This document shows positions 23,207-39,662 of a DNA stretch of 64,000 nt, piece by piece. The notes beneath the pieces were generated by a model. It was not told the origin of the DNA. It searched no databases and saw only the letters and a list, made by a program, of their open reading frames with translations. How positions within the stretch are numbered: position 1 is the first letter of the stretch; every line of letters starts with the position of its first letter. The stretch comes from Rhodospira trueperi. GTDB lineage: Bacteria; Pseudomonadota; Alphaproteobacteria; Rhodospirillales; Rhodospirillaceae. The stretch spans positions 62,001-126,000 of the forward strand of contig NZ_FNAP01000007.1 of NCBI RefSeq assembly GCF_900101965.1, written 5' to 3'. The translations under genes and the position numbers were made by a program.

Positions 23207-25168
<1,962 letters not shown>

Positions 25169-25346: not shown

Positions 25347-25372
25347 GGAACCCGGCGGCTGTGCCAAGCGTT
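25347..25372 (+). promoter_or_regulatory. EcfG-type promoter upstream of DUF2267/UspA genes
   Basis: GGAAC, 17-base spacer, CGTT: an exact match to the EcfG (general stress sigma) consensus GGAAC-N16/17-CGTT. It lies 71 bp before the GTG of the DUF2267 gene in an intergenic region, oriented toward it. The sigma factor itself is encoded at 35165. Confidence 0.65.
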
Positions 25373-25442
25373 CCCTTCCGAGATCTCCGTTGAAAGGGCG
25401 ACCGCACAGCATCACCTTGCGGAACGGGAGGCCACAATCACC

Positions 25443-25860
25443 GTGACGCGTATTGATCACGCCTATCATGAAGCCAACATATGGCTGAACACGTTGGCCG
25501 AAACCCCCGGCATCGGCGCACAGGGCCAAGCCTATGGCGCCCTGCGTGTGGTGCTGCATCAGGTGCGCGACCGTGTCACCGTGGATCAGGCCGCGCACGT
25601 CGGAGGTCAACTCCCGACCCTGATCCGGGGCATCGACTTCGAGGGTTGGAAGCTGGCCGTCATCCCCACCCGGGAACGGTCCCTGGATACGGTCCTGGAG
25701 TCCCTCGGCGACCGCTTGGCGGATGTTCCAAAGATCGACGGTGAGGAGGCCCTGGTGGCTGAAAAAACGGCTCAACGACACGGAAATCGACCACATGCTC
25801 GCGGAGATGCCGAATCAGGTCCGCGCGCGCATTGAGGAGGCCGAGACGACCCGCCACTGA
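25443..25860 (+). pseudogene. DUF2267 family gene with a frameshift near its 3' end
   Basis: From the GTG at 25443 (GGGAGG upstream) the frame encodes a DUF2267 protein: TLAETPGIGAQGQAYGALRV, then the hallmark AAHVGGQLPTLIRGIDFEGW. After VAEK the frame goes off-family and stops at 25835. Removing one base from the six-A run at 25762-25767 restores RLNDTEIDHMLAEMPNQV and continues to a stop at 25858-25860, which matches the usual DUF2267 C-terminus (about 139 aa). So the gene carries a one-base frameshift, either a sequencing error in the A run or a recent mutation. Function of DUF2267 is unknown; it sits in the stress island behind an EcfG-type promoter and before UspA. Confidence 0.7.
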
Positions 25861-25907
25861 CGGCGGCTCCCGTCGTTCCCGTCCCCTCGATGTCAAAGGA
25901 GGCCAGC

Positions 25908-26321
25908 ATGTATTCCCGCATCATGGTTCCCGTCGATCTGGCCCACGGTGAAACCCTGCGTAAGGCCATGACCCAGGCCGGCGATCTCGGCCAGTATTAT
26001 GGCGTCCCGGTGAGCGTGGTCGCGATCACCACGGCGCAGCCCACCGACGTTGCCCGCAACCCGGAGGAGTTCGTCGATGAACTCACCGCGTTCGTTCAGG
26101 AGTACGCCGTGCGGACGGGTGCGCGCATGCAAGCGGATCCCATCATCAGCCACGACCCGGCCACCGATCTGGACCGCGTTCTGCGCAAGCGCAGTCAGGA
26201 ACTGGGGGCGGATCTGGTGGTGATGGCGTCCCACATTCCCCGCTTCCACGATTCCATTTTCGGTTCGCACGCCGGGGCCTTTGTACGCCACAGCGACGTG
26301 TCGGTGTTCGTGGTGCGGTAG
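25908..26321 (+). CDS. Universal stress protein (UspA family)
   Basis: 137 aa from the ATG at 25908, which has a perfect AAAGGAGG site; an in-frame upstream ATG at 25890 lacks one. It has the Usp fold pattern: IMVPVDLAHGETLRKAMTQA, then LGADLVVMASHIPRF and a C-terminal nucleotide-binding-like loop GSHAGAFVRHSDVSVFVVR, which departs from the strict G-2x-G-9x-G consensus. Cytoplasmic stress protein, 47 bp after the DUF2267 gene and probably co-transcribed from the EcfG-type promoter at 25347. Confidence 0.9.
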   Translation: MYSRIMVPVDLAHGETLRKAMTQAGDLGQYYGVPVSVVAITTAQPTDVARNPEEFVDELTAFVQEYAVRTGARMQADPIISHDPATDLDRVLRKRSQELGADLVVMASHIPRFHDSIFGSHAGAFVRHSDVSVFVVR

Positions 26322-26332
26322 GCCCCGTTCGG

Positions 26333-27157
26333 TCAGCCGACCGCCGGATCGTGATTGCCCGCGCCGCCGCTATCCATGGCGAGGCGGGCGATCAGGGGCA
26401 GGTGATCCGAGGCCACACGGGCCGGCCAACCGCGCCACGCCCGGGCCGAGACTAGGCGCGCGCCCGGGCCGGGCCAGACCTTGTCCAGCGGCAGCAGGGG
26501 AAGCGGGGCTGGCCACGTCCGCCGCCAGGGCGGACGCCCACCCAGCCGATCAATCAACGGCCGATAGGTGGGCGACGGCGGCCACATGTCATTGAAATCG
26601 CCGAGGACGACGGTCGCGCGCGGGGCTGCCTTGATCTCCACCTCCCAGGGCGTTCCCAAAAGGCTCGCCAGCCGTTCGGCCTGCCAGGCCCTCTCCGGGC
26701 CTGAAAGCCCGAAGTGGGTCACTACCACGCGCAGACAGCCCCGCGGCGCCTGGATCAGGGCGTCGATGGCCCCGCGCGGCTCGCGTCCGTCGCGGGCGAG
26801 GCTGAAGCGGCGCGCGGCGACGATGGGGTGGCGGCTGAGCAGGGCATTGCCGTAGCGCCGTCCGGCCCGCATCAGATTGGCGCCGGCGCGCGCCTCGCAG
26901 CCCAACGCGTCGGCGAACGTGGCCAGTTGGTCCACCTCCGACGGATCGCTGTCAGGCAGCACCGGCAGGACCGTCAAGTCCTCCAGGTCGGCGCCGCCGG
27001 GGCCGAGCACCTCCTGAAGCCCGATGATATCGGCGTCCAGCCCCCGCAGCACGCGCGCCACCCGCCCGACGTCGCGCCGGCGGTCGAGCCCGACGCAGGT
27101 ATGAACGTTGTACGTCGCGATGGTCAGCGTATCCGGGGACGAGGACAAGGTTGGCAT
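26333..27157 (-). CDS. Endonuclease/exonuclease/phosphatase (EEP) family protein
   Basis: 274 aa from the ATG at 27157; a start at 27184 overlapping the upstream gene is possible. The EEP metal-dependent phosphodiesterase motifs are all present: TIATYNVHTCVG (N-terminus), IIGLQEV (glutamate metal ligand), VVLGDFNDMW and the final SDHLPLIARL. Such proteins cleave nucleic acid or phospholipid/inositol phosphodiester bonds. It follows the PLD-VTT gene by a few bases, so both probably act in phosphodiester or membrane-lipid chemistry in the same operon. Substrate unknown. Confidence 0.85.
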   Translation of the reverse strand: MPTLSSSPDTLTIATYNVHTCVGLDRRRDVGRVARVLRGLDADIIGLQEVLGPGGADLEDLTVLPVLPDSDPSEVDQLATFADALGCEARAGANLMRAGRRYGNALLSRHPIVAARRFSLARDGREPRGAIDALIQAPRGCLRVVVTHFGLSGPERAWQAERLASLLGTPWEVEIKAAPRATVVLGDFNDMWPPSPTYRPLIDRLGGRPPWRRTWPAPLPLLPLDKVWPGPGARLVSARAWRGWPARVASDHLPLIARLAMDSGGAGNHDPAVG

Positions 27158-27164
27158 CACGGTT

Positions 27165-29420
27165 CTACCCCCGCCGCCGGACATCCGGCGCCTGGGTGCG
27201 CGCCGCGCGCCGCGAGACGGCCCTGAAGGCGACCACCAACGCCAGCAGGCCGGCCGCGATCAACCCGGCGCGCCATGGCGAACTCGCCTGGATCACCTGC
27301 CACAGCCCCTCGCCCAACAGACTCATCACCGCGATCCCCGGCACCATGCCGACCAGCGTGCCCCAGATGAAGACACGCCAGGACAGTCCGGCCGCCCCGC
27401 AGGCCAGATTGACCAGCGTGTACAGCAGCACCGGAACAATCCGAAAAAAGAGCACGGTCTTGAGGCCGTGGCGGCGCGCCGCCCGTATGACTCCGTCCAT
27501 GGGCTTGACGCGGGCCTGCAACGCCTCAAGCGCCGGGCCGCCGAGCCGACGGCCGATGGCGAACCCGGCGGCGGCGCTCGCCAACGCGCCCACGGTGCTG
27601 TAGACGAAACCGAGCAGCGGGCCGAACACCACCGCCATGGCCACGATCAAAGCGGTTACCGGTGCCCCCACCAGAGAGCCGCCCGCCATCAGGCCAATGG
27701 CGCCAACCGGCGCCAATGGGTGGACACGGATCGCCTCGACCCAGGCCGTCACCGCCTCGCGCGTCACCATGGCATGCAGAGGGGTCCCCTGCCACACCGC
27801 CACCACGAGGATGACCAGCGCCCCCAGCAGCAACACGCGCCGATACGGATGGCCCTGGGTTTGCCGCGCCACCGCCGTTCCCTCCGGAAAAAACACGCGC
27901 GGCAGGTCCCGGGCCGAGACCGGCGCCTCGAAGTCCCCCGGCACCGGATCGGGCAGCGCCTCAACCAGGTCCTCGGGCGCGTCGCCGCTGTCCACCGGTG
28001 CCAGTCCGCGTACGGCCGGATCGCCGTGGTGGTCGAGGACGGCATGGAGCGAGCCGGTCTCGCGCAGGGTGGCCCGCACCGTCTCGGGCGGGGTGGCGAG
28101 GTGCTCCCCCAAAAGGCGACACAGCACGGTCTCGATCAGAAGTGCCACGTCGGCGCCGCGCGACCGCCCGGTGTCCGGATCGGGCAACCCCGGCTCCAGG
28201 TGCAGATCCAGCTCGGTATCCAGCCCCATCGACCGGTTGTTGAGGTTGGCCGAGCCGTGACGCATGGCGATGTCATCCACGATCATCAGCTTGGTGTGGA
28301 TCTTCATCAGTCCCGACCCGCGCCCTTCCAGCACCGGCGTCACCACCCGCAGGCGCCCGTGCCGGTCGGCGGCGCGCAACGCCCGCAGCAGCCGCTCGCG
28401 CCCCACGCCCATGGTCGCGGTCTCCAGCCAGCCGTCCCAGACGCGCGGGATCACGGCCACCACCTCGGGTCCGTCCGCTGCGGCCAGCCGCTCGGCCAGC
28501 GTCTCGGCGACGAGCCGGCTAGTGAGGTACTGATCCTCGATGTAGATCCAGCGCCGGGCCGCGCGGATATCAGCGGCGATCAGACGGGCGATTTCGTCGA
28601 TGGCGGGGGCGTCGTCGTGGGCCGGCCGGGTCCGCGCCAAGGCCACGGGGAGGGATTCGATATCCGCTGGCACCGACGCGGGCCAGGGAGACGGCAGGTC
28701 GGGCGCCGGGGCGGGCGGCGCCGGCTCGTCCGTGACCCGCGCCCAGCGCGCGCGGATCATGGCGCCGAGGTTGGCCGCGACCGGCCCCTCCATCATCGAC
28801 TGCATGTCATGAAAGGGCGGATATGCCTCGCCGCTGGCCGACAGGCGACGGCGCGGGTCTTCCAGGCGGTGCTCGACGGTATCCCAGCGCGCCTGCGCCA
28901 GATCCAGCCCGCCCATGAAGGCCAGACGGTCGTCGATGACCACGATCTTCTCGTGGTGTGCCGAATCGACCGGTCCCGTGCCGTCCAGGCGCAAGGTCAT
29001 GCGCGGGTGCGGATTCCACTCCCGCCGCCACGCCGGCAGCATCTCCCGGTCGCTGGCGTAGAACATGGGGAAATCCCACAGCAGAACCCGCGCGACAAGC
29101 TCGGGGCGCGCCTCCGTCAGCGCGCGCAGCAGCGGCGCCAGCGTGACCGGCCAGCCGTCGTCCGGCGGCGGGGCGTCCGGATCGCAGAGGGGGACCGTGC
29201 TGGAGATGTCCCAGGCCACGATCAGAATCTGGGACCGCGCCGCGATCAGCGCCGCGCGCAGGGCGGCGAAGTAGGCCGCCCCGTCGATCAGGACCGCGTA
29301 CCGGTCGGCCCGCGTGATCCGCCAGCAGGTCTGGCCCGGTACGGCGAGCGGTGACACGCCGTCCCAACCGTCGAACCCGGCGATATCGCCCGTTGTTGAA
29401 CGTTCGTGATGATTGGACAT
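27165..29420 (-). CDS. Phospholipase D-like / VTT (DedA-type) membrane fusion protein
   Basis: 751 aa. The N-terminal about 500 residues form a PLD-superfamily enzyme with both HKD motifs, [11 protein letters not shown] (about residue 145) and HTKLMIVDD (about 375) followed by [10 protein letters not shown]. The C-terminal about 230 residues have five to six membrane segments with the VTT/SNARE-associated domain ([20 protein letters not shown] and the re-entrant [14 protein letters not shown]). This PLD-VTT fusion is known in proteobacteria and is thought to act on membrane phospholipids, possibly as a transphosphatidylase. ATG at 29420. It is divergent from the ATP-grasp operon, with a weak EcfG-like site (GGTT -10) in the shared region. 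Confidence 0.88.
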
Positions 29421-29489
29421 GGCAACACCCTACGGAACCCGCCCCGATTACACCAGTTCCAGGTTAGACGCGCCTCGCGCCGCCGTCAT

Positions 29490-29514
29490 GGAACGCATCC
29501 CTTGGACCGGCGTT
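29490..29514 (+). promoter_or_regulatory. EcfG-type promoter upstream of the ATP-grasp operon
   Basis: GGAAC, 16-base spacer, CGTT, intergenic and oriented toward the small ORF at 29558 and the ATP-grasp gene at 29700. Exact consensus match for EcfG-dependent general stress promoters. Confidence 0.65.
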
Positions 29515-29557
29515 GACTCCTTACTGGGGCCCACCTTGGCACACAGGAGGACAGACG

Positions 29558-29680
29558 ATGGCCAGATCGAGCGGGTCGCCAACTCCAATGGCACCAACTC
29601 CTATGGCACCATCGTCGGGGCGCTGGCCGTGCCCTTGCCGGAGGGTGGACCGGCGCGCTTCAGCGCGCCGCGCGGCGTAA
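29558..29680 (+). CDS. Candidate 40-residue small ORF behind an EcfG-type promoter
   Basis: A perfect AGGAGG seven bases before an ATG at 29558 opens a 40-codon frame ending TAA at 29678-29680. The peptide has a repeated PTPMAP element near residues 8-18 and an arginine-rich end. It lies 44 bp after an EcfG-type promoter and 19 bp before the ATP-grasp gene. No family recognised; it may be a leader peptide or chance. The strong ribosome site is the main argument for translation. Confidence 0.4.
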   Translation: MARSSGSPTPMAPTPMAPSSGRWPCPCRRVDRRASARRAA

Positions 29681-29699
29681 CGCAGGAGCACCGAATACG

Positions 29700-31040
29700 A
29701 TGGTCGAACCAGACAAGAGCGTCCAGACACCCGCGCCCGGTCGAGTGGTGCTGACCCACGGCCGCAGCCTGATGGCGCTCGCCGTGGCGCGTTCGTTGGG
29801 CCAGCGCGGGATCGAGGTGATCGGGTGCGACGAGACGCCGATGATGGCGCTGTCGTTCTCGCGGTATGTCACCCGCACCTTTCTTCATGACCCCAAGGGA
29901 CCCCACGGAACGGACCATATCGACTCCCTGGCCCAGGGTGTGCGGGACACCGCGCCGTCGGACGGTCGGCCCTATGTGCTCATGCCGATTCACGAGGACA
30001 CGCCGAACATCGCTGCCCGGCGCGATCTGTTCGAGCCTGTCGCCCGGGTCGCGGCGCCCACCATCGAAACCATCGACGCGGTGTTTCCGAAACACAATCT
30101 GGCGCGCACCTTGGAGCGTCTGGGCGTCGAGGCGCCACCGACGCGCCTTCCGGACTCCGCAGAGGAAGCCCGGCGCGCCGCGGAGGACATCGGGTTTCCG
30201 GTGTTCGTCAAACCGGCCTCGTCCACCGGCGGGCGCGGAATCGCGCGGGTCGAGGACGCCGCCGACATGGCGGAGGCGTTCGAGGCCGCGCGGCTGATCG
30301 ATCCGGACGGCACGGTGCTGGTCCAGGGCTTGGCCGACGGCGAAGACTACTGTCTAACCGCGTTGTACCAGGACGGCGTGCCCCGGGTTCACATGGCCTA
30401 TCGCAATCTGGAAACGTTTCCGGGGGCCGGCGGCTTCGGGGTGCTGCGCGAGACCGTCGATCCGGGTCCCATGCCGGCGGTGGCCGAGCGTCTGCTCGGG
30501 CCGCTCGGCTGGACCGGTGTGGTGCAACTCGATTTCCGTTGGGACGGAACAGCCGCCGGAACGCCGCGCCTGATCGAGGTCAATCCGCGCTTCTGGGGCG
30601 GGTTGTTCCAATCCATCGAGTCCGGCGTCGATTATCCGTGGCTGCTGTACCGGATGATGGTCGACGGGACCGTGCCGGCGGTGCCGGAGGTGCGCCTGGG
30701 GCAACGCACCAAGGTTCCGTTGGTGTGGATCCTGGGCGCCATCGAGGACCTGGCCGAGGACGGCGCCCGCTTCGACTCCCTTGAAGAAGCCTGGGCACGG
30801 GCGCGAACGGAAGCCCGCAGCGGTGGCTGGTGGCGCGCGCTGACCCAAATGGCCGGCGGTCTCGGTGATGCCCTGGTGCCGGCCGCGTCACGCCAGCGTT
30901 TTGAATCACGCTGGCAGCGCGCCGAGAGTGCCCGCTCGGAACTGTTCACCGCCGATGATCCGCTGGCCGGGCTCGGCCTGCTGTACGCGGTCGGCTCCCT
31001 GGTTCGAAACGGACGACTGCCGGAGGAGTTCTCCCGATGA
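29700..31040 (+). CDS. ATP-grasp domain carboxylate-amine ligase-like protein
   Basis: 446 aa cytoplasmic enzyme. The N-terminal PreATP-grasp part (VVLTHGRSLMALAVARSLG, about 14-33) is followed by an ATP-grasp core with FPVFVKPASSTGGRGIARV (about 160-180) for ATP binding and LIEVNPRFWGG (about 290) for Mg. Such enzymes join a carboxylate to an amine through an acyl phosphate, or form carbamoyl/biotin-type carboxylates. The stop overlaps the next start (ATGA), coupling it to a class I glutamine amidotransferase-like protein. AGGAG lies just upstream of the ATG. Substrates unknown; part of the stress island. Confidence 0.85.
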   Translation: MVEPDKSVQTPAPGRVVLTHGRSLMALAVARSLGQRGIEVIGCDETPMMALSFSRYVTRTFLHDPKGPHGTDHIDSLAQGVRDTAPSDGRPYVLMPIHEDTPNIAARRDLFEPVARVAAPTIETIDAVFPKHNLARTLERLGVEAPPTRLPDSAEEARRAAEDIGFPVFVKPASSTGGRGIARVEDAADMAEAFEAARLIDPDGTVLVQGLADGEDYCLTALYQDGVPRVHMAYRNLETFPGAGGFGVLRETVDPGPMPAVAERLLGPLGWTGVVQLDFRWDGTAAGTPRLIEVNPRFWGGLFQSIESGVDYPWLLYRMMVDGTVPAVPEVRLGQRTKVPLVWILGAIEDLAEDGARFDSLEEAWARARTEARSGGWWRALTQMAGGLGDALVPAASRQRFESRWQRAESARSELFTADDPLAGLGLLYAVGSLVRNGRLPEEFSR

Positions 31041-31780
31041 CCGACCATCTCCCGACCCTTGGCCGGCGCTGGCCCCGGATCGGTGTGACGGGATCGGCGG
31101 GGCGGCGCGGCGGACGCCTTTGGCCGCTGCACGCACTGTCCCTGTTGATGGCGGGGGCCGTGCCCCGCCGTCTCGTTCCGGGTGCGGACGTGGAGCAGGT
31201 GGACGACCTCGACGCCCTGGTGATCGGCGGCGGCGATGATATCGGCGCCTCCGTGTACGGCGGCGACGTGATGCTTGATGTGCGCATCGACCCGGCCCGC
31301 GATGCCTTCGAACTGGCGGCGCTGGAGCGGGCGGAGCGGCGCGGGCTGCCGGTGCTGGGGGTGTGCCGGGGCGCGCAGATGCTCAACCTGTCGCGCGGCG
31401 GGACGCTGCACCAGGATATGTACGCGGTGTATCGAGAGACGCCACGCCGACGGACCGTCCTGCCGCGCAAGCGGGTCGATGTGGCGCCGCGCACGCGGCT
31501 GCGCCGCCTGCTGGGCCGAGCGGTGACCGGCGTCAACAGCCTGCATCATCAGGCCGTGGACCGCCTGGGCGCGGGCGTGCGGGTGGCCGCGCGCGACCAG
31601 CACGGCATCGTCCAGGCCATTGAGGTGCCGGGCCGCCGGTTCTTTCTCGGTGTGCAATGGCACCCGGAGCTTCTGTTCTACCGGGGGCGTCAGGCGGGAC
31701 TGTATCGCGGTCTGGCGCGCGCGGCCCGTCGGCACCGCCGCCTCGCGGTGGGCCGGCATCACTCATCGGACGTGAGGTAG
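31037..31780 (+). CDS. Class I glutamine amidotransferase-like / gamma-glutamyl hydrolase (peptidase C26) protein
   Basis: 247 aa. Catalytic cysteine lies in LGVCRGAQMLN and the His-Glu pair in GVQWHPELLF, the C26/PuuD type of class I GATase fold; GGGDDIGASVYGG near the N-terminus is typical of the gamma-glutamyl-GABA hydrolase branch. Starts inside the stop of the ATP-grasp gene. A ligase coupled to a gamma-glutamyl hydrolase suggests making and trimming a gamma-glutamyl or other amide-linked compound, but no product can be named. Confidence 0.85.
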   Translation: MTDHLPTLGRRWPRIGVTGSAGRRGGRLWPLHALSLLMAGAVPRRLVPGADVEQVDDLDALVIGGGDDIGASVYGGDVMLDVRIDPARDAFELAALERAERRGLPVLGVCRGAQMLNLSRGGTLHQDMYAVYRETPRRRTVLPRKRVDVAPRTRLRRLLGRAVTGVNSLHHQAVDRLGAGVRVAARDQHGIVQAIEVPGRRFFLGVQWHPELLFYRGRQAGLYRGLARAARRHRRLAVGRHHSSDVR

Positions 31781-31783
31781 ACC

Positions 31784-32581
31784 ATGCCCGAAGATCAGAC
31801 TTACAGTCCGCAGACACCGGCGTTGCAGTACCGGCTTGGCGATTGCACGCCGGCCGAGTTGCTGGACCGCCCTGACCTGTCCCGGCGGGACAAGCTGGCG
31901 GTGTTGCGCCAGTGGGACCACGACGCCATCGAACTGATGGTGGCGGACGAAGAGAACATGGGCGGCGGGAACACTGCCTCGTTGTCGGACATCCGCGACG
32001 CCATCCGAAGCCTTCAGGACCCTCAAGGCGAGGGAGAGGGCACGGAGGATCGCAACGGCTCCACCGTCCGCGAGGTCATGACCACCCCTGTCCGAACGGT
32101 GCACTCCGACAACCGGGTGAGCGAGGTGGCCCGCCAGATGGCTGCGGACACTGTCGGGCTGTTCATCGTGCTGGATGGTGACGCGGTCGCCGGGGTTGTC
32201 ACGGATCGTGACATCGCCGTGCGGGTTGTTGGCGCCGGGCTCGATCCGGCCGCCCATCCCATCGCCGATGTCATGACGAACCGGGTCGTGGCGTGTTACG
32301 GCCGGGCCAGCCTTTCCGAGGCCGCCGACGTGATGAGTCGCGAAGGGGTGCGCCGCCTGTGCGTCGTGGACGACGAGGGCGCGCTGATCGGGCTTGTGTC
32401 GCTCAGCGATCTCGCGCTCGGCAGCGAGAGCGATGCCATGATCGGCCGTGTCCTGCGGGCCATCACGCGGGCGCCGGGATCGGGTCCGTCCATGGCGGGT
32501 GGGGTCACAAGCCGGCATTCCGAGACCAATCGACCGGGCGGACTGCAGGTTTATCACCTGCGTCCGAAAGTCGGCCCCTGA
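31784..32581 (+). CDS. CBS-pair domain protein
   Basis: 265 aa. Residues about 1-85 are an uncharacterised N-terminal segment (DKLAVLRQWDHDAIELMVAD) seen before CBS pairs in stress-related proteins. Residues about 95-215 form two CBS repeats (VREVMTTPVRTVHSDNRVSE, GVVTDRDIAVRV; IADVMTNRVVACYGRASLSE, GLVSLSDLALGS), which bind adenine nucleotides or NAD. Starts three bases after the GATase stop with GAGGTAGACC upstream, and is likely in the same stress-induced operon. Likely a cytoplasmic energy-state sensor. Confidence 0.85.
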   Translation: MPEDQTYSPQTPALQYRLGDCTPAELLDRPDLSRRDKLAVLRQWDHDAIELMVADEENMGGGNTASLSDIRDAIRSLQDPQGEGEGTEDRNGSTVREVMTTPVRTVHSDNRVSEVARQMAADTVGLFIVLDGDAVAGVVTDRDIAVRVVGAGLDPAAHPIADVMTNRVVACYGRASLSEAADVMSREGVRRLCVVDDEGALIGLVSLSDLALGSESDAMIGRVLRAITRAPGSGPSMAGGVTSRHSETNRPGGLQVYHLRPKVGP

Positions 32582-32603
32582 CCCTCGACGAGAGGTGATT
32601 TCC

Positions 32604-33999
<1,396 letters not shown>

Positions 34000-34019
<20 letters not shown>

Positions 34020-34464
34020 GTTCGGGCGGCGCGTCCTGCGTCGTGTCTTCGGAATCGCGCATGGCCGGGTGTCCCGTCGGCCGATCGCCGAGCCCGCGAT
34101 CCACCAGTCCGCGCAGCACCGGCGAGCGCATCAGCACCAGTGCTCCGGCCAGGATCAGGATGGCGCTGGCCTCGAAGAAGATGGCGCGCGGGTCCATTTC
34201 CTTGCTCTGCAGCACGATCAAGCGCGACAGCGCCGTCATGGCGATGAGGATCGGGTACAGGAACGCCGCCCGCTCGCGCGCGTAGTACACCTTCACCATG
34301 CTGAGAACCTCGGCGTAGAGGAACAGCAGCAGAATGTCGGCCAGGGTGACGGTCCGGTTCAGGTAGACGGCCCAGATTTCCAGGCCGACCGCTACGATGG
34401 TCATCACCACGACGAAGCCAAGCAGGATCCGCTCGGCCGCGCCGATCAGGTGCGTGGGACTCAT
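34000..34464 (-). CDS. psiE: Phosphate-starvation-inducible PsiE family membrane protein
   Basis: 154 aa from the ATG at 34464; the longer frame to 34695 runs through the promoter region. Four membrane segments with the PsiE pattern: LIGAAERILLGFVVVMTIVA, LLLFLYAEVLSMVKVYY and YPILIAMTALSRLIVLQSKE. Function unknown, named from phosphate-starvation induction in E. coli. Its 3' end overlaps fumC by 20 bp tail to tail. A minus-strand EcfG-type promoter at 34532-34556 sits 68 bp before the start, so here it is probably a general stress gene. Confidence 0.9.
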
Positions 34465-34531
34465 GCGTCGCCTCGCTGGGTCGGGTTTCGGGCTGTCCCG
34501 GTGCGAACCGCGCGCCGGGGCTCTGCGAGGA

Positions 34532-34556
34532 AACGCTTCTCCACCCGGTGGGTTCC
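34532..34556 (-). promoter_or_regulatory. EcfG-type promoter for psiE
   Basis: On the minus strand: GGAAC (34556-34552), 16-base spacer, CGTT (34535-34532), 68 bp before the psiE ATG. Exact consensus match. Together with 34651-34676 it forms a back-to-back promoter pair between psiE and nepR. Confidence 0.65.
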
Positions 34557-34650
34557 CGTCCCGGAGAGAGGGATGTTTCCTTCTTTTGGATGAGGTGGGT
34601 TGCACCAACGGAGAAACGCCCCAGATACTTGGTATGGTTGGACGCGCCAT

Positions 34651-34676
34651 GGAACGCACCCGCCACCGCAAACGTT
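34651..34676 (+). promoter_or_regulatory. EcfG-type promoter for nepR-ecfG (autoregulation)
   Basis: GGAAC, 17-base spacer, CGTT, 40 bp upstream of the nepR ATG. EcfG sigma factors are known to transcribe their own operon from such sites in Alphaproteobacteria, so this is the expected autoregulatory promoter. Confidence 0.75.
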
Positions 34677-34715
34677 TCGCTCCAGTGGGAGCCACGAGAC
34701 GGGTGGAGCGAAACC

Positions 34716-35069
34716 ATGTCGCACACTGAACGGAACCACGGTCGCTCCCATTGGGACCAGGCGGCCGAACGCAAGCGTGTCAACGGCGGCGGCAATGGCC
34801 GCGCGGACACCGGACTCACCATCGGGGCGGACGCGAAACGCCCCCCGTCTCCGCAAGGAGACCAGCACGTAACGTCTCCGCAAGGAGACCAGCACGTAAC
34901 GTCTCCGCAAGGAGACCAGCACGTAACGTCTCCGGACGGAGACGCCGGCCACGGCATCACAACGCACCTGAAACGGATGTACCGGGAGAGGGTCGAAGAA
35001 CCCCTGCCAGAGACCTTCCGCTCCCTGGTGCGGCGCCTGCGAAGCGCCAACGACACCCCTTCGGACTGA
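34716..35069 (+). CDS. nepR: Anti-sigma factor NepR with repeat-containing N-terminal extension
   Basis: 117 aa; NepR proteins are usually about 60 aa. The conserved NepR core is at the C-terminus (about 80-109: THLKRMYRERVEEPLPETFR), which clamps EcfG until phosphorylated PhyR displaces it. The N-terminal 80 residues are polar and low-complexity and contain three exact copies of the nine-residue unit SPQGDQHVT (45-71) plus a partial fourth (SPDGD). Start at 34716 follows GGAGCGAAACC; a frame open from 34548 would run through the promoter. Directly precedes ecfG by 95 bp. No phyR is visible nearby. Confidence 0.85.
   Translation: MSHTERNHGRSHWDQAAERKRVNGGGNGRADTGLTIGADAKRPPSPQGDQHVTSPQGDQHVTSPQGDQHVTSPDGDAGHGITTHLKRMYRERVEEPLPETFRSLVRRLRSANDTPSD
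34846..34943 (+). repeat. 27-bp in-frame tandem repeat inside nepR (3 copies plus partial)
   Basis: Three identical 27-bp units (34846-34872, 34873-34899, 34900-34926) and a 17-bp partial fourth. Each unit contains the inverted repeat GTCTCC-GCAA-GGAGAC, so the mRNA could form a row of identical hairpins; the partial copy keeps the stem with a different loop. The length (nine codons) keeps the reading frame, so copy number could vary without inactivating NepR. Exact identity implies recent expansion. Confidence 0.95.
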
Positions 35070-35164
35070 CGGAGCGAGCGATCCTCCGCTTTGTTTTCTC
35101 CGGACGGTCCCGAAGCGAGGCCGTCGGGCTCCGTGGCCGGTTCGACGAAAGAAAGGAGGCATCC

Positions 35165-35737
35165 ATGTCGTCCTTCAATCAGGAACTGACCGACGCCTTG
35201 CCCCACATGCGGGCCTTCGCGCATTCGCTGACCAACGACCGTGCGCTGGCGGATGATCTCGCCCAGGAGGCCGCGACCCGCGCGCTGGCCAACCGCGACA
35301 GCTACCAGCCGGGCACCAACTTCCGTGGTTGGGTGTTCACCATCCTGCGCAACGCCTTTTACTCCGAGCATCGGCGCAAATGGCGCAAGAGCGAGGAGAC
35401 CGACGAGGAGACCATGCTGTCCCACGGCGTGCCCAGTGGACAGCAGGCCAGTCTCGAACTCGACGATTTCAAGCGGGCCTTCGCCTGCCTGCCTGAGGAA
35501 CAGCGCGAGGCCATGGTCCTGGTCGGCGCGTGCGGGTTCGAATACGAGCAGGCCGCCGAGATCGCCGGATGCGCGCCCGGTACCATCAAGAGCCGGGTCT
35601 CGCGCGGCCGGCGCGACGTCAAAGCCTTGCTGGACGAGGATAACCTGGACCTGCCCCGGATGCCGGCCGGCAGGCCCGCGCCGCATGACGGCCTGATGGA
35701 GGAGATCGACACCCAACTTGGCTTGGCGGCGCAGTAG
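35165..35737 (+). CDS. ecfG: EcfG-type ECF sigma factor (general stress response)
   Basis: 190 aa. Sigma region 2 (about 10-75: RAFAHSLTNDRALADDLAQE, FRGWVFTILRNAFYSEHRR) and region 4 (about 100-150: FACLPEEQREAMVLVGACGF, IAGCAPGTIKSRVSRGRRDV) are joined by a short linker, as in ECF15/EcfG. AGGAGG precedes the ATG at 35165. EcfG directs RNA polymerase to GGAAC-N16/17-CGTT promoters and is held by NepR, encoded just upstream. Several such promoters lie within 10 kb on either side. An intrinsic terminator follows. Confidence 0.93.
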   Translation: MSSFNQELTDALPHMRAFAHSLTNDRALADDLAQEAATRALANRDSYQPGTNFRGWVFTILRNAFYSEHRRKWRKSEETDEETMLSHGVPSGQQASLELDDFKRAFACLPEEQREAMVLVGACGFEYEQAAEIAGCAPGTIKSRVSRGRRDVKALLDEDNLDLPRMPAGRPAPHDGLMEEIDTQLGLAAQ

Positions 35738-35763
35738 CGCCCGGACGGTCAATCCGACACGCA

Positions 35764-35795
35764 AAAGGGAGCGCACAGTGGGCGCTCCCTTTTTC
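35764..35795 (+). terminator. Intrinsic terminator after ecfG
   Basis: GGGAGCGC (35768-35775) pairs with GCGCTCCC (35783-35790), extended by four A-T pairs and followed by a T run at 35791-35795. Classical rho-independent terminator 27 bp after the ecfG stop. Confidence 0.85.
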
Positions 35796-35850
35796 TTGGT
35801 CGATGCTTCGCCGGCCCCGGCGCACGTCGGTGTCGCCTCTGTCGGAGCCT

Positions 35851-36426
35851 CTACCCGAACGTCCAGACGGCGAACCCGAGGGCGCCGAGAGACATCCCAA
35901 GGGCGACCAGCATCAGGGCTCCATCTTCGGCGAGAAGCGCCAGCCCGAAGACGGCAATTGCGAGGGAAGGCGGCCCCGCCCCGCCTGGAATGATCGCCAG
36001 CGGATACATCGACAGGGCGGTGATGATGATCATCACCATGGCCATTCGACGCCAGACATCGGTGGTGAATGTTCGTAGCCGAGGCTGAACCAACACACTG
36101 GCTCGCCGGGCCCACGGCCGCACGGCGGCGATGGCCTGTCGCGCGCGGTCGCTGCTGATTTCGGCCCGCCCCACGCGTCGCGGCAGGCGGGGCGGCCCGG
36201 ATCGCAGCAACGCCTGCGACAAGAACAGCGTCAGGGCGGTCGCCAGCACGATGCCGGCCCCGGGGATCCAGTTGACCGGCGAGAGCATCACCAGCCCGAT
36301 GGCGAACACCAGCGGTCCCTGGGCGCGCGGCCCGAAGGTCTCCAGGACGTCATCAAGGGATACGGTGTCGCGCTCTGCGGCGCTTCGGTCCAGCGTGTTC
36401 AGAACGCTTTCGACGGTCTGGGCCAT
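35851..36426 (-). CDS. ExoD-family membrane protein
   Basis: 191 aa with about four membrane segments in the C-terminal two thirds. Start VESVLNTLDRSAAERDTVSL and the VFAIGLVMLSPVNWIPGAGI segment match the ExoD (exopolysaccharide synthesis) family, first found in Sinorhizobium where mutants are altered in exopolysaccharide and alkali tolerance. Biochemical role unknown. Convergent with ecfG, transcribed toward its terminator. No clear EcfG promoter was found in the 150 bp upstream. Confidence 0.85.
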   Translation of the reverse strand: MAQTVESVLNTLDRSAAERDTVSLDDVLETFGPRAQGPLVFAIGLVMLSPVNWIPGAGIVLATALTLFLSQALLRSGPPRLPRRVGRAEISSDRARQAIAAVRPWARRASVLVQPRLRTFTTDVWRRMAMVMIIITALSMYPLAIIPGGAGPPSLAIAVFGLALLAEDGALMLVALGMSLGALGFAVWTFG

Positions 36427-36577
36427 TGTTTGTCTCCCCGTTCAACCGCGGGCGGCGAAACACCCCGGAGGGGCGGGTTCAAGAGTCGCGACACCGCGTT
36501 CGCGGTCGAGAGGTGCCCCCGACCGAGAACGCGGCGGTCCACTGGACGGCTGCCCACTGGGACGCGACAGGCGGCGC

Positions 36578-37159
36578 TCAGGTTCGCTCGCGAGCCAGCC
36601 CCAGCTTCAGCATCCAGCCGCCGTTGATGAGCAGCTCGGCGGCCACCAGGACGCCAAGCAGCGTCTTCGACAGGACCGGAATCGTGAACAGGATCGCCAG
36701 ACCGACGCCCAGACTGAGCAGACCGCTGCCCAGCGCCCAGGCCCACCCTTGTAGCAGGCGAACCGAAAACGAAAACGCGGCCTTGGCGAGACCCGAAGCG
36801 GTGAGGAGCAAGCCGACCAGCTTGGTCAGCGTCAGAGTGCCGGCCAGCGGCTCGACCAGGAACATCAGCCCCGCGCCGCCTGCGATCACGCCCAGAATCA
36901 GATGCCAGACGGATCCGCGTTCGCGATTGAACGGCAGGGCGTGCATCAACTCAAAGCCGCCGAGAACGATCAGCGACAGCCCAAGAAACCACTCGACGGC
37001 CGTCGTGGCCAGCCAGGGCAGGAAAAGCGCCGCCGCCCCGGCCAGCAGCGAGACGACGCCGATCCGGGTCAGGTCGCCCTGATCAACGCCCCAAACCCGT
37101 TCCTCTGGCTCGCCATGAAACGTGGGCTCGTCGGCGGTGGATGTCATGGAATGTGCCAT
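36578..37159 (-). CDS. HdeD-like DUF308 membrane protein
   Basis: 193 aa from the ATG at 37159 with AGGAGG eight bases upstream. About six membrane segments; LFLPWLATTAVEWFLGLSLI, GGFELMHAL and LLGVLVAAELLINGGWMLKL match the HdeD (acid-resistance membrane protein) family DUF308. Cytoplasmic N-terminus of about 40 polar residues. Role in acid/stress resistance is by family resemblance and by its position in the stress island. Confidence 0.88.
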   Translation of the reverse strand: MAHSMTSTADEPTFHGEPEERVWGVDQGDLTRIGVVSLLAGAAALFLPWLATTAVEWFLGLSLIVLGGFELMHALPFNRERGSVWHLILGVIAGGAGLMFLVEPLAGTLTLTKLVGLLLTASGLAKAAFSFSVRLLQGWAWALGSGLLSLGVGLAILFTIPVLSKTLLGVLVAAELLINGGWMLKLGLARERT

Positions 37160-37237
37160 TGGATCATCCTCCTGTTTCCGTCCCAACGCCCCGACGTCCG
37201 GGCGGGCCGGACGTCGGGTGAGGGAACACGCGGGCGC

Positions 37238-37543
37238 TTACCCGCGCTGATAGGCCTCGACAACCTTCTTGACCTTGTCGCGAGCCGCCTCGTAGCTGCC
37301 GCGCAGTTCGTTCGAGGCGGCGCTGCCGGCATTCTTCAGCTTTTCGGACTGGTCCTGGAAATCGGCCCAGGCCGTTTCGGCGAGGCGGGAGTCAACCTTG
37401 CCGTTGCCGCCGCCCGATGCTTCGCCGGAACCGCCGCCATTTCCCGTGTCGGAAAAGCTCTGACGCATGTCGTCCCACTTCTGTTTGAGGGCGTCGAAGT
37501 CGCTCTGAACGGCCTGCACATATTTGTTGTCTTGCATGGTCAT
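37238..37543 (-). CDS. Small helical stress-associated protein, family not recognised
   Basis: 101 aa from the ATG at 37543, with GGAGG six bases upstream; the frame is open to 37657 without a better start. Two amphipathic helical parts (YVQAVQSDFDALKQKWDDMR and ELRGSYEAARDKVKKVVEAY) flank a glycine/serine-rich linker (about 32-48). No signal peptide or membrane segment. Charged, heptad-like helices resemble CsbD or LEA-type stress proteins, but I cannot assign a family. Lies between HdeD-like and DUF1328 genes. Confidence 0.7.
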   Translation of the reverse strand: MTMQDNKYVQAVQSDFDALKQKWDDMRQSFSDTGNGGGSGEASGGGNGKVDSRLAETAWADFQDQSEKLKNAGSAASNELRGSYEAARDKVKKVVEAYQRG

Positions 37544-37662
37544 GGTGGTCCTCCATTTCCGGTTGCTGGTTGCGCGTTGGTTTTTCGGCGTTCGACGGTC
37601 CGCGACGCGTCGGCCGTGTCGCAGACGGCGCTCGCGGACGTCATTGGCGAGTGTCATGCCAA

Positions 37663-37918
37663 CCGACGATAGGATTGACTCGTCCGGCCTTCACGACGCC
37701 GAGCCGGCGTTGTTGAATCTTTGTTTTGCTCGCCGCAGCGCCCCTTCTGGGCGCGCGGCTCCGCCGCCCCGGCCGCCCAAAGGGCGGCCATCCTTAAATC
37801 GGCGCCGCGAAGCGGCGCCGTGGGCGCCGGCCCCCAGTCTGAAAAAGCTGGCGTCGCGAAGCGACGCCAGAGGCGCGCCGGCCGGCCGTCGAATGAAGTC
37901 AGGTCATTCGACGGCCGG
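37663..37918 (+). repeat. Dispersed mosaic hairpin repeat, copy B, ending in a 15-bp palindrome
   Basis: 37663-37870 matches copy A (2477-2626, inverted) and in part copy C (55682-55740). It is a chain of hairpins: GGCCGCCCAAAGGGCGGCC, GGCGCCGCGAAGCGGCGCC and GGCGTCGCGAAGCGACGCC. It is followed by a perfect 15-bp inverted repeat with a 7-base loop (37882-37896 with 37904-37918), the strongest palindrome in the window. The whole 386-bp gap 37544-37929 contains no supported gene; the palindrome probably ends the DUF1328 transcript. Confidence 0.8.
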
Positions 37919-37929
37919 TATCCGTGGCC

Positions 37930-38109
37930 TCAAGGCACCGGCGGGCGCCGGCCCGACATCACCGAGGCGACCACGGACACGGCGAACAGGATCAGGAACA
38001 CGAAGAAGAGAACCTGCGCGATGCCGGCCGCAGCCCCGGCGATGCCGCCGAAGCCGAAGATCGCGGCGATGATGGCCACGACGAAAAACATGATGGCCCA
38101 ACCCAACAT
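37930..38109 (-). CDS. DUF1328 small membrane protein (YtjA family)
   Basis: 59 aa from the ATG at 38109 (AGGAGG five bases upstream). Two membrane segments: [20 protein letters not shown] and [20 protein letters not shown], the full DUF1328/YtjA layout; the short GGIAGAAAG loop is conserved. Function unknown; small stress-induced membrane proteins of this family are common in general stress regulons. A degenerate EcfG-like site (AGTT instead of CGTT) lies on the minus strand at 38211-38236. Confidence 0.9.
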
Positions 38110-38454
38110 GGGAGCCTCCTGTTCGTTTGTGACGATGGAGCCGTCGGTGCCGCCAATGATGGGGCCAAAGACGGGACGCGACGGCCGCGCCACGGTGTGA
38201 CTGCATAAACAACTCCGAGCACCCCTGTCGGGTTCCGATGCCGCCAGCGATTTCGTTGCGCGTCTGTTGCGCGTGCCGCCGAGCGCCCGGGATTCGGGCC
38301 TGTCATTCGAATGGGCACTTCGCCCTCTCACGTCAGGGAGGGATTCGGTTTAGCTGGTTGAATGGTAATTGCTTTTCCGCCCGAGACAGGATGGCGGGGG
38401 ACGCCAGTCAGCGGGCAATTCGCGCCGTGACGTGCAATCGGGCGCGTTTTCACG
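38110..38454. other. Intergenic region between DUF1328 and DUF1523 genes
   Basis: About 345 bp between divergent genes with no supported coding sequence. It contains the promoter region of both genes; the plus-strand EcfG-type site at 38455 is given separately. Short frames here have no ribosome sites or family resemblance. Confidence 0.5.
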
Positions 38455-38479
38455 GGAACCCCAGGGCGGCACCGGCGTT
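38455..38479 (+). promoter_or_regulatory. EcfG-type promoter for the DUF1523 gene
   Basis: GGAAC, 16-base spacer, CGTT, 35 bp before the ATG at 38514. Exact consensus match in an intergenic region. Confidence 0.65.
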
Positions 38480-38513
38480 TCCGATTGGCGAAGCGAAATG
38501 AAGGAGACAAGTG

Positions 38514-38978
38514 ATGAAAGCCGACGATCCCGCTGGCACAAACGGTACCGCGACCATGAGTGCGGCCAACATGATGAAAGTCGGGCTGGGGCTGGTCCTC
38601 GTCGTCATTCTGGCATTCGTCTGGGTGCGTTGGGGACCGGGTTCCTGGGAGGTGCAGATCACCGGCACGACCGGTGACGGGCGCGATGTCCAATACCGCA
38701 TCGAGACGGTCTATGCCGGCACCGCCGACACACTGATCTTCAAGAACAAGGATGCCGGGTTCGCGCCCCCGTATTTCAAGTTCGATTCTGCGGACCTGCA
38801 ATCCGTGGCAAGCCGGGTGACCCGCGAATGCCCGCAAGAGCCCGTGATGGTGAACGGGTATGGCCTGCGCATTCCCTTCCTGGACATGTTCCCCAACGCC
38901 GTCTCGATTGACGCACCGGAGCGTTGCCTTAAGGCCCCGTCCGACCAAGGCGAGGGCGAAGTCACCGGGACCGGGTGA
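38514..38978 (+). CDS. DUF1523 family membrane-anchored protein
   Basis: 154 aa from the ATG at 38514 (AAGGAG upstream; a GTG three bases earlier is also possible). One membrane anchor (about 22-40) and a periplasmic domain with the DUF1523 hallmark APPYFKFDSADLQSVASRV followed by NGYGLRIPFLDMFPNAVSI. Function unknown. Sits 35 bp after an EcfG-type promoter and is followed after 59 bp by a small anchored helical protein, probably co-transcribed. Confidence 0.82.
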   Translation: MKADDPAGTNGTATMSAANMMKVGLGLVLVVILAFVWVRWGPGSWEVQITGTTGDGRDVQYRIETVYAGTADTLIFKNKDAGFAPPYFKFDSADLQSVASRVTRECPQEPVMVNGYGLRIPFLDMFPNAVSIDAPERCLKAPSDQGEGEVTGTG

Positions 38979-39037
38979 CATCTGTCCCGCAACCATGATG
39001 CGCGGGAACAAAGCCACTGCAAAAAGGAGACCCCGAT

Positions 39038-39277
39038 ATGAAACAGGCGCTGATGGCCATCGCGATCATTGTGCTCGTCGCCGGGGGCGTCATGGTCGGC
39101 ATGTCGTTGACTCAGTCGGATAGCGAGCAGGCCGGCGATCAGGCCCGGGATGCCGTCGAGGAGGTCGGCGACGCGGTCGAGGAGGCCGGCGAGGCTCTCA
39201 ACGAGGCGACCGAAGGGGCCGCCCAGAGCATTGAGGACGCCGCCCAGCAGGCCGAGGACGCTGCCGACGACAGCTAA
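39038..39277 (+). CDS. Small single-span protein with acidic helical tail
   Basis: 79 aa. Residues about 3-24 are a membrane anchor or signal (ALMAIAIIVLVAGGVMVGMS); the rest is an alanine/glutamate-rich helix with repeated E-x2-x-A patterns (AVEEVGDAVEEAGEALNEA), resembling LEA-like or apolipoprotein-like stress proteins. AAAAAGGAG lies upstream. No family recognised. Probably co-transcribed with the DUF1523 gene. Confidence 0.75.
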   Translation: MKQALMAIAIIVLVAGGVMVGMSLTQSDSEQAGDQARDAVEEVGDAVEEAGEALNEATEGAAQSIEDAAQQAEDAADDS

Positions 39278-39336
39278 GGCGTCCCACGATCCGCTTCCCG
39301 GGTCGGACCCCGCAGGGACGGGGCGGGAAAAATCCC

Positions 39337-39362
39337 GGAACCCGCTCCCCGGGTCCGGCGTT
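39337..39362 (+). promoter_or_regulatory. EcfG-type promoter for the glycine-zipper lipoprotein
   Basis: GGAAC, 17-base spacer, CGTT, 72 bp before the lipoprotein ATG at 39435. Exact consensus match. Confidence 0.65.
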
Positions 39363-39434
39363 CCCCATCAAGTCCGTCCGACCACGAAAGCTGTCGGACA
39401 TCCGTTCACCGGAAAGACCAATGGAGAGCATCCC

Positions 39435-39662
39435 ATGACTGTGCGCACGACCCTGGTTCTCGCCCTGGCCGCGCCGCTCGCCCTGGGCGCCTGTTCGAAC
39501 ATGACCGCCAGCCAGCAGAGCACCGTCAGCGGCGGCGCCATCGGCGCTGGTGTCGGTGCGGCGGGGGCCGCCGTTACGGGCGGCTCGGCGGCTGCGGGTG
39601 CGGCCCTGGGCGGTGCCGCCGGTGCCGCCGCCGGTTATCTGAAGGAAGAACTGCGCGACTAG
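39435..39662 (+). CDS. Glycine-zipper lipoprotein
   Basis: 75 aa outer-membrane-type lipoprotein: signal peptide ending in lipobox LALGAC, then SNMTASQQSTVSGGAIGAG and a glycine/alanine zipper (GVGAAGAAVTGGSAAAGAAL) that can form tightly packed membrane helices. Start ATG 39435 follows GGAGAG. Such proteins (osmotically induced lipoprotein type) occur in stress regulons. Behind an EcfG-type promoter. Confidence 0.85.
   Translation: MTVRTTLVLALAAPLALGACSNMTASQQSTVSGGAIGAGVGAAGAAVTGGSAAAGAALGGAAGAAAGYLKEELRD

What the first reader, a model, noticed from the sequence alone, without database searches (positions are those of the whole stretch)
25347..39362. A contiguous general-stress island with six exact EcfG promoters around nepR-ecfG
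Six intergenic sites match GGAAC-N16/17-CGTT exactly (25347, 29490, 34556 minus, 34651, 38455, 39337), each 35-210 bp before a gene and correctly oriented. They serve DUF2267-UspA, the ATP-grasp operon, psiE, nepR-ecfG itself, DUF1523 and a glycine-zipper lipoprotein. The sigma factor thus sits in the middle of a physically clustered regulon, whereas EcfG targets are usually scattered. Two weaker sites (GGTT at about 29436-29460 minus; AGTT at about 38211-38236 minus) could add divergent promoters.
Basis: partly seen in the sequence, partly recalled or inferred. Interest (0 to 1): 0.7.

Follow-up and report, generated by a model that had tools for sequence, protein, structure and literature searches.

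The report
Clustered EcfG stress regulon lacking PhyR
A bacterium related to Rhodospira and Roseospira keeps a stress sigma factor in the middle of a tight cluster of genes that carry its promoter sequence, but seems to lack PhyR, the protein that normally switches this sigma factor on.

Summary
In detail: six exact GGAAC-N16/17-CGTT sites at the stated places, intergenic, correctly oriented, before the stated genes. Of 95 exact matches in the 4.21-Mb genome, 74 lie inside genes; 6 of the 21 intergenic ones fall in this 14-kb stretch. Six of 95 random positions in 14 kb has p=0.0016. Outside the island the matches look no more promoter-like than a reversed control. Relatives keep such a cluster with shuffled gene order, the sites staying before psiE, nepR, CBS-fumC, exoD, DUF1328 and the Gly-zipper gene.

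Two corrections. Crowding of EcfG sites round nepR is a mild class-wide trend (40 regions, mean 2.3 sites against 0.35 by permutation), so this is an extended case. And the usual switch is incomplete: no PhyR was detected in six genus genomes and one sister-genus genome, while two genomes of another genus of the family carry phyR divergent to nepR-ecfG; here psiE holds that slot. How NepR is released is unknown. All regulation is inferred from sequence.

The parts
25347..25372 (+). EcfG-type promoter, GGAAC-N17-CGTT
   Evidence: 73 bp before the assumed DUF2267 start
25446..25835 (+). DUF2267 protein (GTG start assumed)
   Evidence: PF10025, 2.5e-14, on the longer frame from 25293
25890..26321 (+). 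universal stress protein UspA
   Evidence: PF00582, 4e-14
26333..27157 (-). endonuclease/exonuclease/phosphatase family, probably behind PLD-VTT
   Evidence: PF03372; start from gene finder
27165..29420 (-). phospholipase D plus VTT membrane domain
   Evidence: PF09335, PF00614, PF13091
29436..29460 (-). weaker EcfG-type site GGAAC-N16-GGTT, divergent
   Evidence: 15 bp before PLD-VTT start; C/GGTT is in the consensus given in PMC4814048 (passage)
29490..29514 (+). EcfG-type promoter, GGAAC-N16-CGTT
   Evidence: 185 bp before ATP-grasp
29700..31040 (+). ATP-grasp protein, first long gene of the presumed operon
   Evidence: Pfam ATP-grasp families
31037..31780 (+). class-I glutamine amidotransferase (Peptidase C26)
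   Evidence: PF07722, 2.8e-44
31784..32581 (+). CBS-pair protein
   Evidence: PF00571; ortholog directly behind an exact site in G002 and G024
32595..34019 (+). class II fumarase FumC
   Evidence: PF00206, PF10415 on 32598-34019
34000..34473 (-). PsiE family protein, in the divergent slot where phyR sits in G031 and G012
   Evidence: PF06146, 8.2e-18
34532..34556 (-). EcfG-type promoter of psiE
   Evidence: exact site before psiE in 4 of 5 regions that have the gene, GCAAC-N16-CGTT in the fifth
34651..34676 (+). EcfG-type promoter of nepR-ecfG
   Evidence: exact also in G002, G003a and G004 and in G001 about 300 bp before an assumed start; one mismatch (GCAAC) in G024
34716..35069 (+). nepR, anti-sigma factor, with a repeat-bearing N-terminal extension (start assumed)
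   Evidence: PF18557, 31.4 and 34.2 bits against 25.7
35165..35737 (+). ecfG sigma factor (ECF15 type)
   Evidence: PF04542, PF08281; tree
35851..36426 (-). ExoD; exact EcfG-type site before the orthologs in G003a and G004 but none here
   Evidence: PF06055
36578..37147 (-). DUF308 membrane protein, no EcfG-type site found
   Evidence: PF03729
37238..37543 (-). small protein without a Pfam family, near DUF1328 also in G003a and G004
37930..38109 (-). DUF1328 small membrane protein
   Evidence: PF07043
38211..38236 (-). weaker EcfG-type site GGAAC-N17-AGTT before DUF1328
   Evidence: orthologs in G003a and G004 have exact sites, the one in G003b has none
38455..38479 (+). EcfG-type promoter, GGAAC-N16-CGTT
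   Evidence: 31 bp before DUF1523
38511..38978 (+). DUF1523 protein
   Evidence: PF07509
39038..39277 (+). small protein with acidic repeats; its ortholog in G003b has an exact site
39337..39362 (+). EcfG-type promoter, GGAAC-N17-CGTT
   Evidence: 69 bp before the Gly-zipper gene
39432..39662 (+). Gly-zipper lipoprotein; exact site 88 bp before the orthologs in G003a and G004, none in G001
   Evidence: PF13441, below cut-off
39845..40807 (+). OmpA-family protein after the Gly-zipper gene, same order in G003a and G004
   Evidence: PF00691

Best explanation
The stretch is a compact EcfG (ECF15) regulon with its regulator in the middle. EcfG-RNA polymerase reads GGAAC-N16/17-CGTT promoters before its own nepR-ecfG operon (positive autoregulation) and before at least five neighbouring units: DUF2267-uspA; ATP-grasp/amidotransferase/CBS/fumC; psiE; DUF1523; and the Gly-zipper lipoprotein. 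Weaker divergent promoters may serve PLD-VTT and DUF1328. NepR holds EcfG inactive. In this genus and a sister genus PhyR, the antagonist that releases EcfG elsewhere, appears lost, and psiE occupies its usual divergent slot. Release must then use another factor, turnover of NepR, or a shift in the EcfG:NepR ratio. Shown here: site positions, enrichment, conservation with shuffled gene order, gene identities, no detectable PhyR. Inferred: transcription by EcfG, co-transcription within units, inhibition by NepR, any role in stress.
For: Sites and shuffles. Genome: 95 matches against 54 for the reversed pattern; 6 of 21 intergenic sites lie in 0.33% of the genome. No other of 360 box permutations matches the count in the cores of G000, G002, G003a, G003b and G004. 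Of 28 sites in seven genus and sister-genus cores, 26 are intergenic and 25 lie within 300 bp before a same-strand start (DUF2267 and nepR of G000 were added to the gene calls by hand). CBS-fumC lies behind an exact site in 5 of 5 regions although the genes between site and CBS differ. Consensus and an EcfG-type promoter before nepR-ecfG match published systems (PMC4814048, PMC7083833; passages). EcfG of g1, g20 and g8 form a clade with support 100/99. PhyR not detected.
Against: No transcript data. G001, same genus, has one site and little of the island; G024 has two. exoD, DUF308, the 37238 gene, the 39038 gene and ompA have no site with fewer than two mismatches in this genome. Outside the island exact sites show no promoter-like excess: 15 of 89 intergenic and 8 of 89 within 300 bp before a same-strand gene, against 8 of 30 and 3 of 30 for the reversed control, so a wider regulon is not shown. 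The NepR of G024 departs from the core motif. Absence of PhyR is absence in draft assemblies of 40-750 contigs; a PhyR-like protein of G017 scores only 68.8 bits with the profile, so a strongly diverged antagonist could be missed. HWE/HisKA2 kinases were not searched for.
Confidence: 0.7

Rival explanations
1. The canonical PhyR-NepR-EcfG general stress response is present, and PhyR is merely missing from the draft assemblies or too diverged to detect.
For: PF22233 alone missed a true PhyR in G236 that tblastn and the profile found. A PhyR-like protein of G017 gets only 68.8 bits with the profile, though 2.2e-33 with a full PhyR query. NepR is still present and its core is mostly kept.
Against: Not detected in six of six genus genomes (one of them, G005, also lacks a close EcfG) nor in sister-genus G024; completeness 88-99%. 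With a PhyR from G031 the best E in the six is 2.1e-8 to 2.0e-5, against 3.7e-117 in G012 (G024 was not in that call). The profile of 22 PhyR sigma-like domains scores 164-167 bits in G031 and G012 but at most 61 bits in the seven, where the best hits are EcfG, the second EcfG of G003, or frames similar to EcfG.
Confidence: 0.15
2. NepR is a remnant and EcfG is controlled only through its own transcription and other regulators; the cluster is a constitutive or growth-phase regulon.
For: No PhyR detected; the N-terminal part of NepR is unconserved and repeat-bearing; G024 departs from the core motif; a second ecfG in G003 has no nepR detected beside it.
Against: Five of six regions keep EPLPE[ST]F and the following leucines while the rest diverges, and nepR stays directly upstream of ecfG.
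Confidence: 0.25
3. The motif cluster is a chance or composition effect.
For: Most of the 95 exact genome matches lie in coding DNA, and outside the island they behave like the control.
Against: Shuffles, permutations, scan statistic p=0.0016, and conservation before the same genes in shuffled order.
Confidence: 0.01

Closest known systems
PhyR-NepR-EcfG general stress response of Alphaproteobacteria (ECF15)
   Same: EcfG-type sigma factor, NepR directly upstream, an EcfG-type promoter before nepR-ecfG, the consensus GGAAC-N16/17-CGTT, stress-type genes behind such promoters.
   Different: No PhyR detected in seven genomes; its divergent slot is held by psiE; more neighbouring sites than in most regions sampled. 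Passages read say the three genes are generally at one locus (PMC4814048; PMC8103513) and that homologues are in essentially all free-living Alphaproteobacteria (PMC3892343).
nepR-ecfG/phyR locus of genus g8 (G012, G031, same family)
   Same: EcfG 61-64% identical and in one supported clade with the window's EcfG.
   Different: phyR is divergent to nepR-ecfG; 0-1 exact sites in the core.
Non-canonical EcfG copies such as EcfG2 of Rhizobium etli (PMC3892343, passages)
   Same: An EcfG-type factor partly expressed without PhyR.
   Different: R. etli has PhyR, and its second ecfG has no anti-sigma gene nearby; here the nepR-linked copy itself lacks PhyR.

Membership tests
EcfG (ECF15) sigma factor | sigma2 and sigma4_2 domains, nepR directly upstream | tested here: met
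EcfG (ECF15) sigma factor | groups with nepR-linked EcfGs | tested here: met
   tree of 54 rows (5 of 59 sources gave no row), clade g1+g20+g8 100/99 among nepR-linked rows; the root is for drawing only
NepR anti-sigma factor | PF18557 above the curated cut-off | tested here: met
   31.4 and 34.2 bits against 25.7
EcfG regulon | GGAAC-N16/17-C/GGTT promoters before target genes, including nepR-ecfG | tested here: met
   consensus from PMC4814048 and PMC7083833 (passages)
EcfG regulon | transcription depends on EcfG | not testable with these tools
   no transcript data
Canonical PhyR-NepR-EcfG partner switch | phyR at the same locus, divergent to nepR-ecfG | tested here: not met
   the divergent gene is psiE
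Canonical PhyR-NepR-EcfG partner switch | a PhyR anywhere in the genome | tested here: not met
   none detected in 6 of 6 genus genomes nor in G024; draft assemblies
Canonical PhyR-NepR-EcfG partner switch | HWE/HisKA2 kinase input | not tested

The most novel reading that the evidence does not exclude
In the Rhodospira/Roseospira genus and a sister genus the EcfG-NepR module has become independent of PhyR: a different, still unknown antagonist or NepR turnover releases EcfG, while the regulon has gathered round the regulator into a near self-contained, reshuffling gene cluster.
Probability: 0.3. Interest if true: 0.7.

Novelty: new variant of a known kind. Interest (0 to 1): 0.5.

Why it matters
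PhyR is described as the switch of the alphaproteobacterial general stress response. A lineage that keeps a NepR-EcfG pair and its promoters without detectable PhyR gives a natural test of how else this anti-sigma factor can be released. A regulon that stays clustered through gene shuffling gives a case for asking why sigma-factor targets gather round their regulator.

Tried and rejected
Distant targets: of 15 intergenic exact sites outside the island, 8 lie within 300 bp before a called same-strand gene. That is no more than in the reversed control (8 of 89 outside matches against 3 of 30), so none is claimed. Three looked plausible from their downstream translations: a SodC-like protein (L012), an encapsulated-ferritin plus encapsulin pair (L018) and an acylphosphatase-like gene (L014); these names are my reading and were not run against a library. 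L196 reads like a terminator palindrome. The home-made gene finder missed nepR and DUF2267 and may have missed other small genes; the nepR site itself was filed as 'intergenic, other' and I count it with the six.

Reversed-pattern control: places listed for 54 of 54, but only 30 of 54 classified by gene context.

tRNA-Ala at 34981-35072: minus strand inside nepR; Rfam at gathering thresholds found no RNA in the window; taken as a false positive.

Rarity of nepR without phyR: of 47 NepR-positive genomes among 241 sampled, 44 have a PF22233 match at E<=1e-3, but weak PF22233 matches can be ECF sigma factors. The three without are G000, G179 and G236. G236 has a PhyR. In one search G179 gave no hit above EcfG level; G101's best was 69.6 bits in a 227-residue frame, which I read as an ECF sigma factor; G252's nepR lies at a contig end. 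Only 17 genomes were tested with the profile. PhyR-less pairs may exist elsewhere, and I do not claim uniqueness.

Survey rows: 39 of the 46 other NepR-positive genomes plus G007, whose region is centred on phyR, not nepR. Not taken: G137, G143, G169, G175, G179, G252, G287. Three regions (G190, G234, G251) rest on NepR matches below the cut-off. Four regions are shorter than 14 kb and one is 16.6 kb because of contig ends. All 40 were kept in the counts.

The rivals concern different steps (PhyR detection, NepR function), so the odds do not sum to one.

Literature: searches of the held library showed, among the papers listed (20 of 38), none on a NepR-EcfG pair without PhyR or on EcfG in Roseospira or Rhodospira; most subscription papers are not held. 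Seen as passages only: PMC4814048, PMC3892343, PMC5830050, PMC8103513, PMC6599016, PMC7083833. All other papers only as search listings.
Full report
What was checked. One search finds eight exact GGAAC-N16/17-CGTT sites in the 64-kb window where shuffles average 0.93 (largest 5 of 100). The six end 31-185 bp before the assumed starts of DUF2267, the ATP-grasp gene, psiE, nepR, DUF1523 and the Gly-zipper gene. Pfam confirms the gene identities, with Gly-zipper below its cut-off. The two weaker sites are present.

Genome context. The window is C18:62001-126000 of a 4.21-Mb assembly. Its EcfG is 88% identical to that of an uncultured Rhodospira and 80% to that of Roseospira marina. By equal contig lengths, G002 is that Rhodospira MAG, G003 R. 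marina and G004 R. navarrensis (inference). The genome holds 95 exact matches, against 54 for the pattern read backwards. With a home-made gene finder 74 of 95 lie inside genes and 21 are intergenic; six of the 21 are in the island, 0.33% of the genome. Six of 95 random positions within 14 kb has p=0.0016; with 21 positions 0 of 20,000 draws did so. Outside the island 15 of 89 matches are intergenic and 8 of 89 lie within 300 bp before a same-strand gene, no more than in the reversed control (8 of 30 and 3 of 30 classified). So exact sites elsewhere look like chance: either the regulon is concentrated here, or its distant promoters are not exact matches.

Relatives. In 16-kb cores round ecfG, G000 has 6, G002 5, G003a 5, G003b (a second ecfG of G003) 4, G004 5, G001 1, G024 2, G031 0 and G012 1 exact sites (G012's core was 12 kb). 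In the first five no other of 360 permutations of the two boxes reaches the observed number. Of 28 sites in the seven genus and sister-genus cores, 26 are intergenic and 25 lie within 300 bp before a same-strand start (two genes of G000 added by hand). Gene order differs, yet sites stay with genes: psiE has an exact site in 4 of 5 regions and GCAAC-N16-CGTT in the fifth; the Gly-zipper gene in 3 of 4; exoD in 2 of 3; DUF1328 in 2 of 4, plus the one-mismatch site here. GCAAC is named as one of the two commonest -35 boxes in Sphingopyxis (PMC7083833, passage). CBS-fumC follows an exact site in 5 of 5 regions: directly in G002 and G024, behind exoD in G003a and G004, and behind ATP-grasp and amidotransferase genes here; for the last three this assumes co-transcription. 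Promoter sequences that keep their genes while the order changes are the strongest sequence evidence that they work. For scale, a 320-bp stretch holds an exact site by chance in 1.1% of draws and one with at most one mismatch in 7.8%.

Is clustering unusual? In 40 other regions (39 round nepR of class members, one round phyR of G007; most 20 kb) the mean is 2.3 sites against 0.35 by permutation. Within 1.5 kb of the locus 53 sites were found where permutations average 2.5; farther out 38 where they average 11.5, and no other permutation reaches 38. Twenty-one of 40 regions have no distal site and 2 of 40 have five; this genome has four. The island is an extended form of a class-wide tendency, and the statement that targets are usually scattered is only partly right.

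PhyR. Passages read say that ecfG, nepR and phyR are generally at one locus with phyR divergent (PMC4814048, PMC8103513) and that the three are in essentially all free-living Alphaproteobacteria (PMC3892343). In G012 and G031, genus g8 of the same family, phyR is divergent to nepR-ecfG. In the window's genus it was not detected. PF22233 gives nothing in five of six genomes and only the second EcfG in G003. The PhyR of G031 as query gives best E values of 2.1e-8 to 2.0e-5 in the six, the listed matches lying in the receiver part (the list was cut), against 3.7e-117 in G012. A profile of 22 PhyR sigma-like domains scores 164-167 bits in G031 and G012 but at most 61 bits in G000-G005 and G024, where the best hits are EcfG or frames similar to it. 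A limit: a PhyR-like protein of G017 scores only 68.8 bits with that profile, so a very diverged form could escape it. The divergent slot holds psiE, with its own exact site, in G000, G002, G003a and G024; in G004 one gene intervenes, and G001 has no psiE there. G005 has no close EcfG either. EcfG of g1, g20 and g8 form one clade (100/99), so loss of phyR in g1 and g20 is the simplest reading; branching inside the clade is not resolved.

Mechanism. Most likely EcfG drives its own operon and the neighbouring units, and NepR restrains it. Five of six regions keep the EPLPE[ST]F core of NepR while the N-terminal part diverges; G024 departs from it. I think NepR still works. What releases it is not known: an unrelated antagonist, proteolysis of NepR, or a shift in the EcfG:NepR ratio through autoregulation. 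None of these was tested.

Verdict. Observation confirmed; interpretation partly supported; a new variant of a known kind. The clustered regulon alone is of moderate interest; the undetected PhyR raises it.

Noticed in passing
window 23241-23334: A 94-base run of C with one interruption (38 + 55 C), read as poly-glycine at the 3' end of a CitMHS/TrkA-C transporter gene on the minus strand. No other run of 14 or more C or G was in the sequences held. Assembly artefact or unstable tract; not resolved.
   Followed up: partly
window 34846-34943: 3.6 copies of a 27-base repeat inside the 5' part of nepR; the three full copies hold TCTCC-GCAA-GGAGA, a possible hairpin, and encode SPQGDQHVT. The string was found only at this locus in the sequences held.
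   Followed up: partly
window 29558-29680: A 40-codon reading frame with an AGGAGG ribosome site, 43 bp behind the 29490 promoter and before the ATP-grasp gene, with a PTPMA repeat. Possible leader peptide.
   Followed up: partly
L034 and L079-L080 (G003b): Roseospira marina has a second ecfG with DUF308, DUF1328 and a PLD-like gene nearby, three intergenic EcfG-type sites, and no nepR detected beside it.
   Followed up: partly
L018 1501-1525: An exact EcfG-type site 121 bp before what reads like an encapsulated-ferritin and encapsulin gene pair; not above chance on its own.
   Followed up: no
L316 (G179) and L307, L314 (G101): Two other sampled genomes with a NepR match (G179's below the cut-off) and an EcfG-like gene but no clear PhyR in the profile search, so PhyR-less pairs may be more widespread.
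   Followed up: partly
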